From Sycon ciliatum (taxonomy: Eukaryota > Porifera > Calcarea > Leucosolenida > Sycettidae), in the NCBI RefSeq assembly GCF_964019385.1, contig NC_088645.1, forward strand, positions 17,872,680-17,936,679: a stretch of 64,000 nucleotides of DNA, given 5' to 3'. Made by a program: the position numbers and the translations under genes. Under the pieces are notes generated by a model. The model was not told where the DNA came from, searched no databases, and worked only from the letters and a program-made list of their open reading frames with translations. Below are positions 3 to 57,112 of this stretch, piece by piece (the stretch's first letter is position 1; every line of letters starts with the position of its first letter).

Positions 3-2066
3 GACCAGTTCAAGGCAGATTTGGTCCAACAGGATTTTTGTGAAATTGACGGAAGCCCAACTGTCATGTGGACTGAGTGGGCCAGCCGCTTTCTACAAGT
101 GTTAGACAGACATGCTCCTCTTGCACCAAGCCCTCGACGCAAGAAAAAATCAGTACCATGGATGAACCGCCAGTTATTACACCTCTTGACCAAGCGCAAC
201 CGGCTCCATAGGAGGTGGCTTAGTGATGGAACAGAACATTCCCACTCAGCTTTCAAGGCTGCCAGGCGGGAAGCTACCAGCTATAATAGGCAACAGAAAG
301 AGACCTACTACCAATCCAAGTTTCGAGCTGCGTCTGGCAATACCAAACAGACATGGCACACGATCAAAGAATTGAGTGGTAAACATCGACAATCTCAGCC
401 ACCTCAATGTTCTGTTGATGCCGTCCGAAACACCTTTGCAGAGATAGTAGAGGACGCCAGCCGCCCAGTGCATCTCTCATTTCCCTACGGGCCCGCCTCA
501 AGCACTGATCTGACAGCCTTTGCGCCAGTGTCTATTGCCAGAGTGAGGAAGCTCCTCGAACGTTTAAATCCGGCCAAGTCCAGCGGTGATGATGATATTT
601 CTGCAGCCCTTCTCCGCGCACATGCAGACATACTGGCGCCATCCCTGACTTTGATCTTTAACAAGTCCCTGAGAGAGGGCATATTTCCTGCCCAGATGAA
701 AAGTGCTAGGATATCGCCACTCTTCAAAGGCGGAGATCCGAGCATGCCAAAGAATCATCGACCAGTGTCCTTGTTATCGATTGCATCCAAAGTGTTGGAA
801 AGGATAGTCCACGAGCAACTCACACGATATCTAGTTCAGAGCAATTTATTCCCGCCAACTCAATTCGGCTACAGATCCCACCACTCTACATCCGACGCAC
901 TAGTGCTAGCTGTGGAAGGTATCTGTGAGGCCCGTATGAACAGACTCAACACAGGTGTAGCCTTTGTTGATATGTCAAAGGCATTCGATAAAGTGAAACA
1001 TCAAACTCTTGTGCAAGATCTGTTCGAACTTGGCATCTGCGACACGGCACTCTGTTGGCTGGTGGATTACCTCTCTGATAGAGAACAGTACGTTCAGGTT
1101 GGCCAGACTAGAAGTCTCCCGTACACCAGTTACTCAGGTGTCCCCCAGGGGTCGGTACTGGGCCCACTGCTATTTATTGTCTATGCCCGCGGCATAGCAG
1201 AAGAACTATCACCGTTTAATGTGGGAGCAATCCAGTTTGCTGATGACATCTCTATACGATGTAGCAGGGAGTCTGCGGAAGCTGTTTCTGCACACCTTTC
1301 AGCTGCTGTTCAGCACCTGGCCACCTGGCTGAAGGGCCGTGGTTTAATTCTTAATGAAAGAAAGACACAGATATTGCCTATTCCCCCATCCCCATCTCAA
1401 GCACTTGAGCTGCATGTCATTTGTAATGGGCAGACGCTGCCTGTTGTGAAAACGGCCAAGTATCTTGGCCTACATTTCGACTCAGACATGAGCTGGAACA
1501 CCATGACAAGCCATGTTGCACGCCGCGTTGCCGCTAAGATTGGGCTACTAAATCGAAGTGCAGCATGTTTGCCTTTTTCTTGCCGTGTTCAGTTTTTCAG
1601 GTCCTTTATACTATCAGAATTTGACTATGCATCTGCTGCCTATGCCCCTTTCTTATCGTCTTATCAGGATAAGCGCCTAAATAGTTTGTTCAAACGTGCG
1701 GCTCGCTCGGTGTGCAGGGCAGCCCCTCGCACTCACACGGCTCCCTTACTTGAACGCATGAATGCCCATACCCTCAGCATATACACCCACATGCACATCC
1801 TTGTATTCATTTGGCGCTGCCTGAACAAATCTTCAAGTACTCTGTTTGCAAGCTTTTTCACCCGTAGTCCCTCTCTCCGAACACGAGGAGGGAACAGCAA
1901 GTTACTCATCATTCCTGTCTCCCCCACTGCATCCTCAGCTAAGCGCATTAGCCATGCTGGAGCTATCCTGTGGAACCAGCTCCCAGACACAGCACGCCTC
2001 GAAAGAAAGCGCTCCACTTTCAAATCGCTAAGCCTGGCCTTTCTGTTAGGCAGTACCGTCAACTAG
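3..2066 (+). CDS. Non-LTR retrotransposon reverse transcriptase, C-terminal part
   Basis: The frame is open from the left window edge to a TAG at 2064-2066, so the N-terminal part, including any endonuclease, lies outside the window. About 687 residues are visible. The reverse transcriptase domain spans roughly residues 185-450: the finger motif around RISPLFKGGDP, then NHRPVSLLS, the catalytic FVDMSKAFD, GVPQGSVLGPL, and the active-site FADD near position 1237. A thumb and connection region follows, ending in the WNQLP motif common near the C terminus of CR1/L2/Jockey-type enzymes. No stop or frameshift interrupts it, so this is a fairly young copy. It would prime reverse transcription at a nicked genomic target. 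The clade (CR1/L2-like versus another jockey-group lineage) is not decided. Confidence 0.93.
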   Translation, partial: DQFKADLVQQDFCEIDGSPTVMWTEWASRFLQVLDRHAPLAPSPRRKKKSVPWMNRQLLHLLTKRNRLHRRWLSDGTEHSHSAFKAARREATSYNRQQKETYYQSKFRAASGNTKQTWHTIKELSGKHRQSQPPQCSVDAVRNTFAEIVEDASRPVHLSFPYGPASSTDLTAFAPVSIARVRKLLERLNPAKSSGDDDISAALLRAHADILAPSLTLIFNKSLREGIFPAQMKSARISPLFKGGDPSMPKNHRPVSLLSIASKVLERIVHEQLTRYLVQSNLFPPTQFGYRSHHSTSDALVLAVEGICEARMNRLNTGVAFVDMSKAFDKVKHQTLVQDLFELGICDTALCWLVDYLSDREQYVQVGQTRSLPYTSYSGVPQGSVLGPLLFIVYARGIAEELSPFNVGAIQFADDISIRCSRESAEAVSAHLSAAVQHLATWLKGRGLILNERKTQILPIPPSPSQALELHVICNGQTLPVVKTAKYLGLHFDSDMSWNTMTSHVARRVAAKIGLLNRSAACLPFSCRVQFFRSFILSEFDYASAAYAPFLSSYQDKRLNSLFKRAARSVCRAAPRTHTAPLLERMNAHTLSIYTHMHILVFIWRCLNKSSSTLFASFFTRSPSLRTRGGNSKLLIIPVSPTASSAKRISHAGAILWNQLPDTARLERKRSTFKSLSLAFLLGSTVN

Positions 2067-44247: not shown

Positions 44248-45140
44248 CGACTGCAATTTCTGACACAAATTCATAAATCCACGAGTACGCCGAGGAAGCT
44301 CAGCGGATCTCCACAAGAACTTTCGCCCATCACCTGCAATGGAATATGGGCTGTATGATACGACCAGTGGTTAACACGGGAAGTGGCGTCATTTTCCACA
44401 AATCTCGTTTCATTCACAACCATTTGACTGCAATTCAGTGCAATTTCTGCCGCAAATTCAACTCCACGAGTACGAGGAAGCTCAGCGAATCTCAACACGA
44501 ACGTTCGCCCATCACCTGCAATGGAATATGGGCTGTATGCTACGACCAGCGGCTAACACGGGAAGTGGCGTCATTTTCCACAAATCTCGTTTCATTCACA
44601 ACCATTTGACTGCAATTCAGTGCAATTTCTGCCACAAATTCAACTCCACGAGTACGAGGAAACTCAGCGGATCTCAACACGAACGTTGGCCCATCACCTG
44701 CAATGGAATATGGGCTGTATGCTACGACCAGCGGCTAACACGGGAAGTGGCGTCATTTTCCACAAATCTCGTTTCATTCACAACCATTTGACTGCAATTC
44801 AGTGCAATTTCTGCCACAAATTCAACTCCACGAGTACGAGGAAACTCAGCGGATCTCAACACGAACGTTGGCCCATCACCTGCAATGGAATATGGGCTGT
44901 ATGCTACGACCAGCGGCTAACACGGGAAGTGGCGTCATTTTCCACAAATCTCGTTTCATTCACAACCATTTGACTGCAATTCAGTGCAATTTCTGCCACA
45001 AATTCAACTCCACGAGTACGAGGAAACTCAGCGGATCTCAACACGAACGTTGGCCCATCACCTGCAATGGAATATGGGCTGTATGATACGACCAGCGGCT
45101 AACACGGGAAGTGGCGTCATTTTCCACAAATCTCATTTCG
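44248..45140 (+). repeat. 182-bp tandem array, five units
   Basis: GCAATTTCTG marks units at 44440, 44622, 44804 and 44986, with a first, slightly different unit from 44252. Units contain CACGAGTACGAGGAA and CACCTGCAATGGAATATGGG and differ by a few bases. Because 182 is not a multiple of three, each unit opens a shifted frame; the repeated 117-codon frames are not genes. Confidence 0.95.
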
Positions 45141-45739
45141 TTCACCCCAACTCAAATAAAAGTGAAGTACAATTAGGGATTTGTCTTGCATTTCCATCGC
45201 CTCAGAATAAATTAACTTCGATAAACTGAGAGAGAATGAGTGAGGCAGCTGGAAGATGAGGATGAAAATAGAGATCAGAAGACTCGACGGAGCAATCGTC
45301 TCCGTGCTCTAAGAGAAATCGGAGAATGTCCCAATTAGTATTTCAAGAAGACATCACAATTTTCGAAAATAATAATTTCCTTGCCTCGCAACACCGTTCC
45401 CTGGCAGCGTTCCCCGGCAGCGCGAGGCAAAGGATGTTTTCTGGGAATGTGTGCCGTGTCCTCTCCCGGGCTTTTACGACTCCCTGGTTGAAATCAACCC
45501 GGGTCAAGAAAATCGTACAAACGTACTTCTGTGCGTATCTCGCGCCAGGTTTGAACAGCACTCTGCAGATGCAAATTTCGCGCGAACGGATTCACGTGAT
45601 CATACAGGACTGTAGAAGTGGACTTTTGGCGGCATATCAGTATTTGACCCGGGTCAACTGTCTTCATGTAAACGCTCACCTCTTTTGTCTATCGTACAGA
45701 CTTTCAACCCGGGCTGAACTCGACCCGGGTTTTTAATTT

Positions 45740-49422: not shown

Positions 49423-50020
49423 TAGGACATGTTTAACTTTAAGAAATGGTTTGCTCCCCACACCGGAGCTCGCGCTATTCCGCCGACTTTACTTGACACT
49501 TGACTACTCACAGTACGAAGTAGTGGTTGCGACTTCGGCGATGATTTGTAAGAAACTAGCAGCACCACCGGCCAGCGTTGCCTGGCCGAATGTGGCATGC
49601 GGGTGAAGCAAGTATAGTACGTGAACAGCACACGTGCTCAGCACGTGGTGGTGGCCAGACCGCTGAAGTCCTGGTGAGGGAGGTTCTTCATGGTTGGAAG
49701 GAGAAGGAGGGACGTCTCGTCTGTTACGCCTTCGGGAGGCTGGTCAGGGTTGTCCATCACCTGGTGGCGGATGAAGCGGCTCAAAAAATTCATAAACTTA
49801 CGAACAAAAGTGCGATGCGCTCTTCACTGCAGATCAGATGCAGAGTGCAGTCAGTGCAGATCTCTTGTATCCTTTTGTTGCAGATGTTTATATTTGCAGA
49901 GAACGGTTCACGTGGTCCGCAGCGCTTGTGCGGCTGCTAGTGCTACCTATGGCCTAGGCTAGGTGGCTACATGATTCGCACGCTTCGCGTGCTCAGTGCT
50001 TCTGCGCCCGGCTGCTACTG

Positions 50021-50716
50021 CTACTCGTACTGATCGTGTCTGCTACCACCTACACTGTTCGCACGCTTCGCGTGCTCAGCACGTGGTGGTGGCTACACGA
50101 TATGTACGATTCGCACGCTTCGCGTGCTCAGTGCTTCTGTGGCTGCTTCCGCTCTACACGATTCGCACGCTTCGCGTGCTCAGTGCTTCTGCAGCCGCTA
50201 GCTACACTGTGCTACACTGTTCGCACGCTTCGCGTGCTCAGGGCAGCGTGACACAAACACACACGTCACAGGTGCCTCTTCTTTATAAGGAGCGTGACAC
50301 ACACACACACACACACACAGACACACGTCACAGGTGCCTCTTCTTTATAAGTAAAGACTACTCGTACTGATCGTGTCTGCTACCACCTACACTGTTCGCA
50401 CGCTTCGCGTGCTCAGCACGTGGTGGTGGCTACACGATATGTACGATTCGCACGCTTCGCGTGCTCAGTGCTTCTGTGGCTGCTTCCGCTCTACACGATT
50501 CGCACGCTTCGCGTGCTCAGTGCTTCTGCAGCCGCTAGCTACACTGTGCTACACTGTTCGCACGCTTCGCGTGCTCAGGGCAGCGCTGCTCCGCAGCGCT
50601 TCAGCGTGACACAAACACACACGTCACAGGTGCCTCTTCTTTATAAGGAGCGTGACACACACACACACACACACACACAGACACACGTCACAGGTGCCTC
50701 TTCTTTATAAGTAAAG
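50021..50716 (+). repeat. Two tandem approximately 340-bp units with hairpin motifs
   Basis: 50021-50357 and 50358-50716 are near-identical (start CTACTCGTACTGATCGTGTC, end TTCTTTATAAGTAAAGA); the second has a small insertion. Each unit includes four hairpins GCACGC-TTC-GCGTGC: at 50061, 50113, 50165 and 50223, then 50398, 50450, 50502 and 50560; a ninth is at 49978. Confidence 0.92.
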
Positions 50717-50912
50717 ATGGTTTGTGCACTGCCCAGCGCGGGCTTGCGACTAGTTGGTTTGGAGGTGACAGCGTTGCGAATGACCGAGGGTCCTCGACGT
50801 CTGTCTCACCGTCCAGGAGCGACACTGACTCACGCTGCTATCTGGTGTTCACGAGGTGTTTGTCGCGCTTGAAACGGAGCGTCTCTGTAAGTTTGTATCC
50901 CTGGTGATGTTT

Positions 50913-50952
50913 GTGCCTGGAGAGCACTATATAAGTGGTGCTCTTCAGGCAC
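50913..50952. promoter_or_regulatory. Palindrome enclosing a TATA box
   Basis: GTGCCTGGAGAGCAC (50913-50927) pairs with GTGCTCTTCAGGCAC (50938-50952), one mismatch, around the loop TATATAAGTG. It lies 17 bp upstream of the ribozyme; a promoter role is inferred from the TATATAA. Confidence 0.45.
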
Positions 50953-50968
50953 AATCTTCCTCAGCCTA

Positions 50969-51025
50969 CTCAAGCTCAACTGATGAGGGGTGAATTCCCC
51001 GAAACACTGTGTATTGAGCAGGGAG
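50969..51025 (+). ncRNA. Hammerhead ribozyme 1 (type I)
   Basis: Stem I GCTCAA (50974-50979) / TTGAGC (51014-51019); core CTGATGA (50980-50986); stem II GGGG-TGAATT-CCCC (50987-51000); core GAAA (51001-51004); short stem III CA-CTG-TG; cleavage triplet GTA (51011-51013), with cleavage predicted after 51013. An outer CTC/GAG pair (50969-50971, 51023-51025) extends stem I beyond an internal loop. All invariant core bases are present. A two-base-pair stem III is typical of Penelope/retrozyme hammerheads, which are thought to act as dimers. Confidence 0.88.
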
Positions 51026-51227
51026 TGGTGCTTTCTTGCAGGTTTGCCGAGTCGAAGGTTCGATGGACTTCTCGTGTGCTCTGGATGGCAGTCGTGAGTC
51101 AGTCAAGTGTCAAGTAAAGTCGGCGGAATAGCGCGAGCTCCGGTGTGGGGAGCAAACCATTTCTTACAAATCATCGCCGAAGTCGCAACCACTACTTAGG
51201 ACATGTATTAGTAATACTATTACTTGG

Positions 51228-51845
51228 GAGAATGAAGTTGAAGACACCACTGCAGCTGTACTTATGGTTGATAAATATGGTGGTAAAGACACACCTGGCA
51301 ATATGGCGGTAAACACACGCGTGCCCACACACGCTCTCTAAGCTGCAAAGTTCTAGCACAGAGCTCTCCTTCTCACCACCACCACCATCAGTTCGCGCCT
51401 GGCGCCTAGTCGATGCATGGTTGGCGGTATCCGACATAGCAGGCTGGTACATCAAGTAGCGCATGGCACATAGAAGATGACACAGCAACGACATAGCTCG
51501 ATTGCGACGTACGTTTCGTCCCCGCTGGACTCATCAGGCAATCTTCTTCTTGGATGTCTTCATACGGAGCTTGGCTCGGGAGAATGAAGTTGAAGACACC
51601 ACTGCAGCTGTACTTATGGTTGATAAATATGGTGGTAAAGACACACCTGGCAATATGGCGGTAAACACACGCCTGCCCACACACGCTCTCCTTCTCACCA
51701 CCACCACCATCAGTTCGCGCCTAGCGCCTGGCGCCTAGTCGATGCATGGTTGGCGGTATCCGAGAGTATTAGAGAGCGTGTGTGGGCAGGCGTGTGTTTA
51801 CCGCCATATTGCCAGGTGTGTCTTTACCACCATATTTATCAATAT
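51228..51845 (-). mobile_element. Hammerhead-ribozyme retroelement 2 (retrozyme/Penelope-like, non-autonomous)
   Basis: 618 bp bounded by a perfect 10-bp target duplication TATTACTTGG (51218-51227 and 51846-51855). Unit 51228-51577 is exactly 350 bp and carries a minus-strand hammerhead; a partial second unit (51578-about 51770) lacks it; the end (about 51774-51845) is an inverted copy of the unit start. In ribozyme orientation the order is inverted fragment, partial unit, full unit with ribozyme, the same plan as element 1. No reverse transcriptase. Confidence 0.87.
51500..51543 (-). ncRNA. Hammerhead ribozyme 2 (type I)
   Basis: On the minus strand: stem I GATTGC (51543-51538) / GCAATC (51505-51500); CTGATGA (51537-51531); stem II GTCC-AGCGG-GGAC; GAAA (51517-51514); stem III CG-TA-CG; cleavage triplet GTC ending at 51506. 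Stem II and core match the classical hammerhead (GAUGAGUCC...GGACGAAAC). Every invariant base is present. Confidence 0.93.
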
Positions 51846-51855
51846 TATTACTTGG

Positions 51856-52190: not shown

Positions 52191-52606
52191 TAAGGGGCCG
52201 TCCACAAAATATCGATATATTTTTAGAGAAGATATTCGTTCGTTTTGGGGGGGGGGGAGGGGGGTTGGGCCCTGTTCGTCTCGTCTTCCGAGAAAAAATA
52301 TCGAACTCTATGGACGGGCACTGTTCGAACATGTAGTTTATGACCTACGCAAAGTGAAAGTCAACCTCGTGAACATAGCCATGGCAAGGTTGTGCGACCG
52401 TGGCAACGTAAACCTAGGTGTATGGTGAAATTAGAGTTGCAGCTGGTCACGTTTTATGAGGAAATTGCACTTCATTAAAAAATATCGATCCTTTGCATAA
52501 ACATGCGTATGTTCGTTTTGAGGGGGGAGGGAGGGGGTCTGGGGAGAAATGAACAAAAATTAATATCGTCTTGAAAAAAAGATCGATATTTAAGGACGAC
52601 CCCTAA
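52191..52606. mobile_element. MITE with GGGGCCGTCC ends
   Basis: AAGGGGCCGTCCACAAAATA at the left and GGACGACCCCTAA at the right, with ATCGATAT sub-terminal on both sides. About 415 bp with G-rich interior tracts; no ORF. Superfamily not assigned. Confidence 0.75.
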
Positions 52607-52610
52607 TTAA

Positions 52611-53460
52611 AGGGGAAGTTAAGGCAAAAATTAAAATTTCACCAATTGTAGTCTTCGGGGTGCTGAGTCGAATGGTCGTGGTCCGAGGAAGCTGAGACGC
52701 TCCCTTCCTACTTGAATCCCAATCGAACTCGCGCACTTCCACCGAAACTGGGTGACTGCGCCCTACTAGATGGGGATTTGTATGCAAAATGTCACTAAAA
52801 GCGCCATTTCGTTCTTATAAAAGCATGGATGACGGCGATTGGCCCATATGTTGTAGTCTTTTGGACGCTGAGTCGATTGGTTTTGGTCCGAAAAGGCTGC
52901 GATGCAGCGTTCCTCCTTTATTCCCAATCGAACATGGTTGAACAAGCGGTCACGTGCTCCTGCGTACGCCAGTCACCTGGTCACCGTGCCTGCAGGGTAC
53001 AACTTACTAGCTTGTTTGACCTTTTTTGGGTGCAGTCCTGTCACTCCAGTTGAACCTTGGTGTGAAAGTTGTCGCCTGCTGGCGTGGTGACCAGGTGATT
53101 TGGGCACCCAGGAGCACGTGACCACTTGTTCAACCATGTTCGATTGGGAATAAAGGAGGAACGCTGCATCGCAGCCTTTTCGGACCAAAACCAGTCGACT
53201 CGGCGTCCAAAAGACTACAACATATGGGCCAATCGCGGTCATCCGTGCTTTTATAAGAACGAAATGGCGCTTTTAGTGACATTTTGCATACAAATCCCCA
53301 TCTACTAGGGCGCAGTCACCCAGTTTCAGTGGAAGTGCGCGAGTTCGATTGGGATTCAAGTAGGAAGGGAGCGTCTCAGCTTCCTCGGACCAAGACCATT
53401 CGACTCAGCACCCCGAAGACTACAACTGGTGAAATTTTAATTTTTGCCTTAACTTCCCCT
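52611..53460. mobile_element. TTAA-flanked foldback element 1
   Basis: 850 bp with inverted arms of about 380 bp (52611-52990 and 53073-53460) around a spacer of about 80 bp; ends AGGGGAAGTTAAGGC / GCCTTAACTTCCCCT; target TTAA on both sides (52607-52610, 53461-53464). TTAA targets are characteristic of piggyBac-type elements. No transposase. The arms open short mirrored frames that are not genes. Confidence 0.92.
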
Positions 53461-53695
53461 TTAAGTACCTACGCAATGGATAATATATCATTCATTACCC
53501 TGATGATGGGCCAGGCCTGAAAATTTGGTGTATTGTTAATCTTTAAAAAAAAAAATTTAAAATTTGAATCGCAGTGAAGAGACCGTATTTTGGAATTGAG
53601 AAGTGACGTCTCCTAGATTGTGTAACTATTACTTACACTGTGAGTGGCTGTGTTGGAGTTTGCGGACCATGAGAAAATAAGACGGGCACCTAAAT

Positions 53696-54559: not shown

Positions 54560-54642
54560 TCGACCTTCTCTCTCACGGAGCTAAGCAGAATGTACGTCAT
54601 CACCTGTAGTCGCCATGGAAACGGGATCAGGAAATCGGCGAT

Positions 54643-54828
54643 ATGGCAAGTAGTAATAGGTTTTTCATTTTGACCCGACGAGACCATACGACGCTTGCAG
54701 ATCACAGCACGAACAGTCCCCCCAGCCACACTCCACGAAAGCAAGTAGAAGTACTCCTGACAAGTCTTGTTTCGTTCCATAGAGATAATAACGGGGAACT
54801 CATCAGAGGAGAAGCAGATGTTGAATGA
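54643..54828 (+). CDS. Small ORF downstream of gene F, 61 aa
   Basis: ATG in a GCGATATGGC context, TGA at 54826-54828, 83 bp after gene F. Protein-like composition (FFILTRRDHTTLADH, PRKQVEVLLTSLVSFHRDN). The opposite strand is also open. Could be a separate small gene or a downstream exon. Unrecognised. Confidence 0.35.
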   Translation: MASSNRFFILTRRDHTTLADHSTNSPPSHTPRKQVEVLLTSLVSFHRDNNGELIRGEADVE

Positions 54829-55055
54829 AGGGGTTTAGCTGAATAATGCTATTTTATAGAAAAGATATTGGCGCACTGAGGTGTAAACACTCAACTAACT
54901 CACATATGTGACAAATCAACACAAAAGGAATAGTGCAGAATGGATATGGCAAGTAATAAGTTAGTTTCCCTTGCCGTACGCAAGCGAGAGATATACCATC
55001 GGAACCGATATCCTCTGAGCCATACTTGAAAAAAATCGATGCACTTCCCCTTTAA

Positions 55056-55902
55056 AGGGGAAGTTAAGGCAAAAATTAAAATTTCACCAGTTGTAGTATT
55101 CGGGGTGCTGAGTCGAATGGTCGTGGTCCGAGGAAGCTGAGACGCTCCCTTCCTACTTGAATCCCAATCGAACTCGCGCACTTCCACCGAAACTGGGTGG
55201 CTGCGCCCTACTAGATGGGGATTTGTATGCAAAATGTCACTAAAAGCGCCATTTCGTTCTTATAAAAGCACGGATGACCGCGATTGGCCCATATGATGTA
55301 GTCTTTTGGACGCTGAGTCGACTGGTTTTGGTCCGAAAAGGCTGCGATGCAGCGTTCCTCCTTTATTCCCAATCGAACATGGTTGAACAAGCGGTCACGT
55401 GCTCCTGCGTACGCCAGTCACCTGGTCACCGTGCCTGGGTACAACTTACTAGCCTGTTTGACCTTTTTTGGGTGCAGTCCTGTCACTCGAGTTGAACCTT
55501 GGTGTGAAAGTTGTCGCCTGCTGGCGTGGTGACCAGGTGATTTGGGCACCCAGGAGCACGTGACCGCTTGTCCAACCATGTTCGATTGGGAATAAAGGAG
55601 GAACGCTGCATCGCAGCCTTTTCGGACCAAAACCAGTCGACTTAGCGTCCAAAAGACTACAACATATGGGCCAATCGCGGTCATCCGTGCTTTTATAAGA
55701 ACGAAATGGTGCTTTTAGTGACATTTTGCATACAAATCCCCATCTAGTAGGGCGCAGTCACCCAGTTTCGGTGGAAGTGCGCGAGTTCGATTGGGATTCA
55801 AGTAGGAAGGGAGCGTCTCAGCTTTCTCGGACCAAGACCATTCGACTCAGCACCCCGAAGACTACAACTAGTGAAATTTTAATTTTTGCCTTAACTTCCC
55901 CT
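55056..55902. mobile_element. TTAA-flanked foldback element 2
   Basis: 847 bp, same family and ends as 52611-53460; TTAA at 55052-55055 and 55903-55906. Confidence 0.92.
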
Positions 55903-56746
55903 TTAAGGCTAAAATCAAAATTTCACTAGTTGTAGTCTTCGGGGTGCTGAGTCGAATGGTCGTGGTCCGAGGAAGCTGAGACGCTCCCTTCCTACTTTAA
56001 TCCCAATCGAACTCGCGCACTTCCACCGAAACTGGGTGACTGCGCCCTACTAGATGGGGACTTGTATGCAAAATGTCACTAAAATCGCCATTTCGTTCTT
56101 ATAAAAGCACGGATGACTGTGATTAGCCCATATGTTGAAGTCTTTTGGACACTGAGTCGACTGGTTTTGGTCCGAAAAGGCTCCTCCTTTATTCCCAATC
56201 GAACATGGCTGAACAAGCGGTCACGTGCGCCTGCGTACACCAGTCACCTGGTCACCATGCCTGCAGGGTACACTACTAGCCTGTTTGACCTTGTTTGGAT
56301 GCAGTCCTAGATCCTGTCACTCGAGTTGAACTCGAGTTGAACCTTCGTGTGAAAGTTGTTGCCTGCTGGCGTGGTGACCAGGTGATTTGGGCACCCAGGA
56401 GCCCGTGACCGCTTGTTCAACCATGTTTGATTGGGAATAAAGGAGGAACGCTGCATTGCAGCTTTTTCGGACCAAAACCAATCGACTCAGTGTCCAAAAG
56501 ACTACAACACATGGGCCAATCGCGGTCATCCGTGCTTTTATAAGAACGAAATGGCGCTTTTAGTGACATTTTGCATACAAATCCCCATCTAGTAGGGCGC
56601 AGTCACCCAGTTTCGGTGGAAGTGCGCGAGCTCGATTGGGATTCAAGTAGGAAGGGAGCGTCTCAGCTTTCTCGGAGCAAGACCATTCGACTCAGCACCC
56701 CGAAGACTACAACTGGTGAAATTTTGATTTTAGCCTTAACTTCCCC
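55903..56746. mobile_element. Foldback element 3, abutting element 2
   Basis: Same family. Its left end starts at the internal TTAAGGC, so it lacks the first eight bases AGGGGAAG and shares one TTAA with element 2. The right end is TTAACTTCCCC at 56737-56746. Confidence 0.88.
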
Positions 56747-57112
56747 AAGGAGGGGAAGGTGAGCGCAACCAAGATAAGCACGAGCTGAAAGTCTCAGCTG
56801 TGAAGGACGTTGGCGGATGTTCATGCATGTCGATGATAATAGAACGCCATGTAGACTATAGTCATACGCATACATCATGTCTTGGCTTACATGGTCTATT
56901 AGTAGAGCATGCAGTCCGGCTGCAAATCGTCGAAGCACACAGTCTGAAAGTCCACCCTCTGTTACACAACCAATTTGAAGAGAAGACCCTTTTTCTGATT
57001 TCGAAAGAAAGCCCAAAGGTTGTATTCTGTACGTGTGCACGTGTAACATTATTGCTGTTTGAGTGAAGGACATAATTATAAATAAAGAGCAGTTACATGT
57101 GCGAACATGCAT
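56747..57112. other. No firm gene
   Basis: A minus frame (57112-56663) runs into the foldback element and is probably spurious. Confidence 0.35.

What the first reader, a model, noticed from the sequence alone, without database searches (positions are those of the whole stretch)
49423..51855. Two adjacent hammerhead-ribozyme retroelements in opposite orientation
Two elements (49433-51196 and 51228-51845) lie 31 bp apart, each with its own perfect 10-bp target duplication (TAGGACATGT; TATTACTTGG) and a complete type-I hammerhead, one per strand. Both share one architecture in ribozyme orientation: inverted terminal fragment, body, ribozyme-bearing unit. Neither encodes a protein. The sequences differ, so they are two families rather than a duplication. 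This fits Penelope-like elements or animal retrozymes, whose hammerheads are known to have short stem III and to yield circular RNAs.
Basis: partly seen in the sequence, partly recalled or inferred. Interest (0 to 1): 0.95.

Follow-up and report, generated by a model that had tools for sequence, protein, structure and literature searches.

The report
Ribozyme retroelements inserted by Penelope machinery
Two neighbouring pieces of mobile DNA in an animal genome carry self-cutting RNA ribozymes, and the scars left by dozens of their copies suggest that circular RNAs were copied round and round into DNA by the enzyme of Penelope-type jumping genes.

Summary
The two elements are real: each has a 10-bp target duplication and a type I hammerhead (one per strand; only element 2's passes Rfam). 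They belong to two dispersed non-coding families with units of 478 nt (element 1) and 352 nt (element 2). Element 1's 1.16-kb "body" is an unrelated repeat. Of 44 insertion records, 37 have two head-to-head tandem arms. In 30 of 30 simple two-armed, duplication-flanked records (31 with L044), one outer end lies at site A and the other at site B, 23-43 nt apart (median about 35). One record without a duplication breaks the rule. Autonomous Penelope-like elements (PLEs) in the same genome obey it in 5 of 5 insertions examined, and an Anolis PLE starts reverse transcription at two such sites in vitro (PMC11167929). Most arms exceed one unit, run through the ribozyme cut site and end inside at scattered positions; units of an insertion share private variants. 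This points to PLE-type two-primer, rolling-circle reverse transcription of one monomeric circular RNA. PLE mobilisation of animal retrozymes is a published hypothesis; I did not find this footprint in my searches. Circular RNA and self-cleavage are untested here.

The parts
49423..49432 (.). left target-site duplication TAGGACATGT of element 1
   Evidence: exact copy at 51197-51206; no other copy in the window
49433..49555 (-). inverted arm of element 1; outer end at site A; two pieces, unit 437->365 and 476->431
49556..50715 (+). independent dispersed repeat at the head-to-head junction of element 1 (not part of the 478-nt unit)
   Evidence: 39 other places at 95-97% over its first 465 nt; same ends in 5 of 5 copies fetched
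50716..51196 (+). ribozyme-bearing unit of element 1 (478-nt unit; aligned from 50730), outer end at site B
50974..51019 (+). type I hammerhead of element 1: stem I 6 bp, stem II 4 bp, stem III 3 bp; predicted cut 51013/51014
   Evidence: pattern scan; core intact in 67 of 70 family units covering it; not reported by Rfam
51197..51206 (.). right target-site duplication of element 1
51218..51227 (.). left target-site duplication TATTACTTGG of element 2 (15 bp with one mismatch if extended)
51228..51768 (-). main arm of element 2, 1.6 tandem 352-nt units, outer end at site B (51228)
51500..51543 (-). type I hammerhead of element 2; predicted cut between 51506 and 51505
   Evidence: Rfam RF00163 35.4 bits
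51769..51845 (+). inverted arm of element 2 (74 nt aligned, 0.21 unit), outer end at site A
51846..51855 (.). right target-site duplication of element 2

Best explanation
Both elements are non-autonomous, non-coding retroelements of the animal retrozyme type, inserted by the machinery of Penelope-like elements. Inferred cycle: a genomic copy is transcribed, the hammerheads cut the RNA to unit length, and the monomer is closed into a circle. A PLE reverse transcriptase/GIY-YIG endonuclease makes staggered cuts about 12 bp apart in AT-rich DNA. Each of the two DNA 3' ends primes synthesis, one at site A and the other at site B, about 35 nt apart in the 'tail' of the RNA. Each enzyme copies round the circle for a fraction of a turn to several turns, and the two cDNAs are joined at arbitrary points. 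The product is two head-to-head tandem arms of one monomer between short target duplications. Shown by sequence: the families, arms, paired ends, duplications, one-monomer-per-insertion pattern, and the same footprint in autonomous PLEs of this genome. Inferred: self-cleavage, circularity, and that the PLE protein is the enzyme.
For: (1) Paired ends: 44 insertion records after dropping 2 segmental duplicates. The simple two-armed records with a duplication have one A and one B end in 14 of 14 (element-2 family) and 16 of 16 (element-1 family); L044 adds one after a trailing fragment is separated. Compound loci L056 and L070 resolve into four adjacent A+B insertions. A and B occur on either side. 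(2) PLE control: autonomous PLEs are present; 5 of 5 PLE insertions with both ends read have one A and one B end, head-to-head arms and shared end strings of 11-12 bp, up to 4 bp of which may belong to the element. (3) Precedent: a PLE protein cuts and extends both strands in vitro and starts at two adjacent internal RNA sites that delimit the 30-40 bp 'tail' (PMC11167929, parts 1-2 of 4 read). (4) Template: 51 of 67 arms exceed one unit; inner ends show no departure from uniform (KS p 0.20, 0.13) and do not sit at the ribozyme cut (3 of 67 within 10 nt, 3.4 expected, complex loci left out). (5) Single monomer: at columns covered by 3 or more units, 69 variants are fixed through an insertion, 13 partial, 208 confined to one unit. 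(6) AT content of the duplications 78.6%, against 56.6% in the first 200 nt of the stretches.
Against: No RNA, cleavage or enzymology data. L066 has two B-type ends, but no duplication and arms differing at 20 of 473 positions. L042, L065 and L072 have an end that could not be assigned. The windows for A and B were set after seeing the ends, and ends were shifted by up to 10 nt to fit the duplication. 6 of the 31 cases lie in (ATT)n, where a duplication is not diagnostic, and L036's 8-bp duplication is marginal. In the duplication null (300 random pairs) 7 pairs scored high because they fell inside tandem arrays; the rest were at most 7.6. Retrozyme units share only short tail similarity with the PLEs, so the partner PLE is not identified. 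The arms of L033 differ at 10 of 352 positions, so two template molecules may have been used there. Gene conversion could also homogenise units. The Anolis study found ribozyme mutants still inserted in vitro and suggested unprocessed RNA as substrate.
Confidence: 0.76

Rival explanations
1. PLE machinery inserts these elements, but the template is an uncut linear multimer transcribed from an existing tandem array, not a circle.
For: Arms longer than one unit need only a multimeric template. The Anolis PLE used unprocessed RNA in vitro, and its ribozyme mutants still inserted (PMC11167929).
Against: 15 of the 69 fixed variants are private to their locus among the loci read, at columns with 3 or more units, while partial variants are fewer (13). 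A mutation in one unit of a parental array should not become fixed in a whole new array copied from a multimer. Autonomous PLE arrays show the same: spacers differ at 0 positions (four in one array), 0 (two from opposite arms) and 1 (two in a third) within an insertion, and at 4-7 between insertions, including a 3-nt indel present in both arms.
Confidence: 0.17
2. The elements were moved by a LINE-type (target-primed) retrotransposon with twin priming, not by a PLE.
For: A frame with an RT domain, LINE-like by my reading, lies in the window (21-2066). Twin priming by LINE-1 also gives inverted 5' parts (recalled).
Against: Twin priming does not predict two fixed start sites about 35 nt apart, one per arm, internal to the unit. 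The printed ends show no poly(A) tail of the element. The PLEs of this genome show the observed footprint. LINE insertions of this genome were not examined.
Confidence: 0.04
3. Satellite DNA: the arrays spread and were homogenised by recombination, and the ribozyme is incidental.
For: Units are tandem and mostly homogeneous within loci.
Against: Dispersed loci with target duplications, fixed outer ends, inverted second arms and sub-unit arms are insertion products, not satellite expansion.
Confidence: 0.03

Closest known systems
Metazoan non-LTR retrozymes (Cervera and de la Pena 2020, PMC7229834)
   Same: Small non-coding units with type I hammerheads, tandem, target duplications longer than 4 bp, species-specific sequence, co-existing with PLEs; PLE mobilisation is proposed there as a hypothesis.
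   Different: The parts of that paper I read (1-4 of 6) do not mention inverted arms or paired ends. Here GC is 52-53% (paper: below 45% in a legend, below 50% in the text), and the element-1 unit (478 nt) is above the 170-400 nt range given.
Penelope-like elements (Penelope/Poseidon type; PMC11167929, PMC3846280)
   Same: Head-to-head arms, optional 30-40 bp tail on one arm, short target duplications, AT-rich targets, hammerhead near the ends.
   Different: The window elements and their units encode no RT or GIY-YIG endonuclease; only short similarity in the tail to the PLEs of this genome.
Plant LTR retrozymes (PMC4918200; seen only as search listing with the start of its abstract, and as described in PMC7229834 and PMC7761336)
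   Same: Non-autonomous, hammerhead, circular RNA intermediates.
   Different: Type III ribozymes, LTRs, primer binding site and 4-bp duplications; here type I ribozymes and duplications of 8 bp or more.

Membership tests
Metazoan non-LTR retrozyme | type I hammerhead in each unit | tested here: met
   core intact in 78 of 78 and 67 of 70 units covering it; Rfam reports only the element-2 type
Metazoan non-LTR retrozyme | short tandem unit, circles of about 170-400 nt | tested here: inconclusive
   unit 352 nt fits; unit 478 nt is longer
Metazoan non-LTR retrozyme | low GC content (below 50%) | tested here: not met
   U1 53.3%, U2 51.7%; a descriptive feature, and one reason to call these a variant
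Metazoan non-LTR retrozyme | no coding capacity | tested here: met
   no ORF of 150 aa or more in the window elements
Metazoan non-LTR retrozyme | self-cleavage and abundant circular RNA in tissue | not testable with these tools
   no RNA data
Penelope-like element (autonomous) | ORF with RT and GIY-YIG endonuclease | tested here: not met
   absent from the window elements; present in separate PLEs of the genome
Insertion by PLE machinery | one of the two arms longer at its outer end by a tail of about 30-40 nt | tested here: met
   30 of 30 simple two-armed duplication-flanked records, and L044; one exception without duplication (L066)
Insertion by PLE machinery | head-to-head arms with target duplications of roughly 9-15 bp in AT-rich DNA | tested here: met
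   two arms in 37 of 44 records (with L044); duplications 8-21 bp, commonest 12; the longest include (ATT)n sites
Insertion by PLE machinery | dependence on PLE protein | not testable with these tools
   needs an in vitro or cell assay

The most novel reading that the evidence does not exclude
PLEs in general, and the retrozymes that ride on them, integrate by two-primer rolling-circle reverse transcription of a ribozyme-made circular RNA. The hammerhead of PLEs exists to make that circle, and an asymmetric pair of reverse transcriptases always starts once at A and once at B. This would explain tandem pseudo-LTRs, inverted arms and the optional tail by one mechanism.
Probability: 0.55. Interest if true: 0.87.

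Novelty: new variant of a known kind. Interest (0 to 1): 0.74.

Why it matters
Which enzyme mobilises animal retrozymes and what the hammerhead does in Penelope-like elements are left open in the papers read (PMC7229834, PMC7761336 passages). A footprint that can be read from a genome assembly (one A end, one B end, two tandem arms of a single monomer) makes both questions testable by computation, and suggests a direct in vitro test with a PLE enzyme and a circular template.

Tried and rejected
Rejected: element 1's 'body' as a functional part. A linear ribozyme-cut monomer as template (inner ends not at the cut, arms longer than one unit). Shared ancestry of the two units (only words of 8 nt shared, tail alignment no better than shuffles). 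A target motif oriented by the A side (none beyond AT-richness in 30 duplications). Circular folding as a general feature: U1 is more stable than an approximate shuffle (-201.6 against -162.0, SD 4.8), U2 is not (-100.4 against -107.3, SD 6.4). Tail similarity of retrozymes to PLEs is only suggestive: best location among 704 windows in U2 and second-best location among 956 in U1; 9 and 21 of 1000 base shuffles scored as high; the scoring was chosen after seeing the sequences. miRNA-like Rfam matches at 51653-51809 are below gathering scores and come from the inverted arm. Rfam reported nothing in two PLE loci; the PLE ribozyme core is my reading of the sequence.

Not achieved: counting hammerheads in the whole genome by pattern, and searching copies of the third motif (54806); the genome search machine answered none of those requests.

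Full report
What was checked first. The two 10-bp duplications and both hammerheads are in the sequence. The - strand ribozyme (51543-51500) passes Rfam's type I model at 35.4 bits. The + strand ribozyme (50974-51019) has the full core, stem I of 6 bp, stem II of 4 bp and stem III of only 3 bp with a 3-nt loop; Rfam does not report it even at E<=5. The same scan found 0.02 motifs per simulated 64-kb window (2 of 100 windows had one), against 3 here. The third, at 54806 on the - strand, could not be followed up.

The families. The window lies in a 538-Mb eukaryotic assembly (C3:17872680-17936679). Element 2 returned 343 matches, with 40 of 1634 first-look candidates scored; element 1's unit returned 162 matches, with 40 of 225 scored. 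Counts are lower bounds. The units are 352 nt and 478 nt and repeat head to tail. I read 20 element-2 loci and 23 element-1 loci, plus the window. These are the best-scoring or conveniently small loci, not a random sample.

Element 1's body. The first 465 nt of the stretch 49556 to about 50715 match 39 other places at 95-97% (40 of 522 candidates scored); none coincides with an array listed. Five of five fetched copies begin and end at the same points. It is an unrelated repeat at the head-to-head junction of element 1. I saw no clear duplication around it, so nested insertion and capture at the cDNA junction are both open.

Arms and ends. Each locus was aligned to a concatemer of its unit. 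37 of 44 records (L034 and L035 dropped as segmental duplicates of L033) have two arms whose ribozyme strands point outwards (with L044). Every simple two-armed record with a duplication has one end at site A (element-2 unit 309-318, element-1 unit 434-445) and one at site B (344-355 and 467-474, counting past the unit end): 14 of 14 and 16 of 16. The distance between the two ends is 23-43 nt, median about 35 (my arithmetic). L044 adds one after a trailing fragment is separated, with a 13-bp duplication. L056 and L070 are compounds; each splits into two adjacent A+B insertions inside (ATT)n, where duplications are not diagnostic. If each arm chose A or B independently, 30 of 30 mixed pairs would have a chance of about 1e-9 (my arithmetic; the windows for A and B were set after seeing the ends). 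The records that do not count are L066 (two B-type ends, no duplication, arms differing at 20 of 473 positions), L042, L065 and L072 (one end unassigned; L065 was cut by my fetch), and seven one-armed records (L031, L038, L041, L045, L067, L068, L073), whose single outer end is also A or B.

Duplications. 36 of 44 records have one by the scoring (8-21 bp, commonest 12). In the earlier null of 300 random pairs, 7 scored 18.6 or more because they fell inside tandem arrays, the others 7.6 or less, with the 95th percentile at 5.1. L036, at 8 bp, is marginal.

The PLE control. A GIY-YIG search of the genome (13 matches) and a protein search (57 matches, 56 of 3573 candidates scored) found autonomous Penelope-like elements, many with frames of about 800-960 aa and no stop, some in tandem arrays (five frames at C1:78.52-78.54 Mb) and some two-armed (C7:1.365-1.377 Mb). 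Pfam reports only the GIY-YIG part of the 807-aa frame; the RT is recognised by its YIDD motif and PLE-like layout (my reading). Three groups (about 96%, 68% and 61% identical to the query) gave five insertions whose two ends were read; the frame of one of them (L075) has a stop. Each has one end without and one with a tail of 34-38 nt, and shared end strings of 11-12 bp, of which up to 4 bp may be element sequence. The Anolis PLE study reports in vitro that the enzyme cuts and extends both strands and starts at two adjacent internal sites that delimit this tail, without a difference between strands. The Adineta study describes head-to-head inverted pseudo-LTRs, 9-10 bp duplications, an optional 31-bp tail on one of them and one arm 37 bp shorter (passages).

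The template. 51 of 67 arms are longer than one unit (up to 7.5 among those counted), so the template was not a linear, ribozyme-cut monomer. L034, L035, L042, L044, L056, L065, L070 and element 1 of the window were left out of this count. Inner ends show no departure from uniform (KS p 0.20 and 0.13), 3 of 67 lie within 10 nt of the cut against 3.4 expected, and arms join with gaps of up to 8 nt or overlaps of up to 9 nt. Within an insertion, at columns seen in 3 or more units, 56 variants were fixed, 5 partial and 73 in a single unit for element 2's family, and 13, 8 and 135 for element 1's. Fifteen of the 69 fixed ones occur in no other locus read. One monomer was therefore copied into all units in most insertions, which a circle explains directly. 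The same holds for the PLE: four spacers of one array are identical, two from opposite arms of another are identical including a 3-nt insertion, two of a third differ at one position, while different insertions differ at 4-7 positions. L033 goes against one molecule per insertion: its arms differ at 10 of 352 positions.

What is known and what is new. Retrozymes as circular-RNA-producing elements, and PLEs as their likely partners, are in print, the latter as a hypothesis (PMC7229834, parts 1-4 of 6 read; PMC7761336 passages; PMC11722881 passages). Six searches of the held library, judged from their listings and the passages read, showed no paper that reports the PLE end signature on retrozymes or rolling-circle reverse transcription by PLEs. 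Two relevant older papers (PMC4209133, PMC5785218) are not held, and preprints are not covered. The elements are new families of a known kind that depart in GC content, unit size and documented two-armed structure; their value lies in the mechanism they expose.

What remains inferred. Self-cleavage, circularity, the ligase, and the identity of the PLE that moves each family are not shown. The tail similarity between retrozymes and PLEs is weak. LINE insertions were not scored as a negative control.

Noticed in passing
window 54806 (-), region 54640-54959: A third hammerhead-like motif (stem I 5 bp, II 5 bp, III 4 bp) between two near-identical 17-nt direct repeats 303 nt apart; genome copies could not be searched.
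   Followed up: partly
window 49556-50715: Dispersed repeat starting CTAGCAGCACC with variable internal TTCGCACGCTTCGCGTGCTCAG repeats; 39 other places at 95-97% over its first 465 nt.
   Followed up: partly
L033, L034, L035 (C5 31.87-32.08 Mb): One insertion in three apparent segmental-duplicate copies whose two arms differ at 9-10 of 352 positions: perhaps two different RNA templates in one integration event.
   Followed up: partly
L056, L070: Element-1-family copies inserted side by side in (ATT)n, each with its own A and B end.
   Followed up: partly
G000 C1:78524354-78538508 and C7:1365523-1377181: Tandem and two-armed arrays of autonomous Penelope-like elements without stops; spacers identical or nearly so within an array.
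   Followed up: partly
window 52604-53467 and 55042-56761: Long palindromes (arms of 280-402 nt, 92-96% complementary) in three related copies.
   Followed up: no
window 44252-45145: Tandem array of about 4.9 copies of a 182-bp unit, 96% matches.
   Followed up: no
window 21-2066: 681-aa frame with a reverse transcriptase domain (PF00078), LINE-like by my reading.
   Followed up: no
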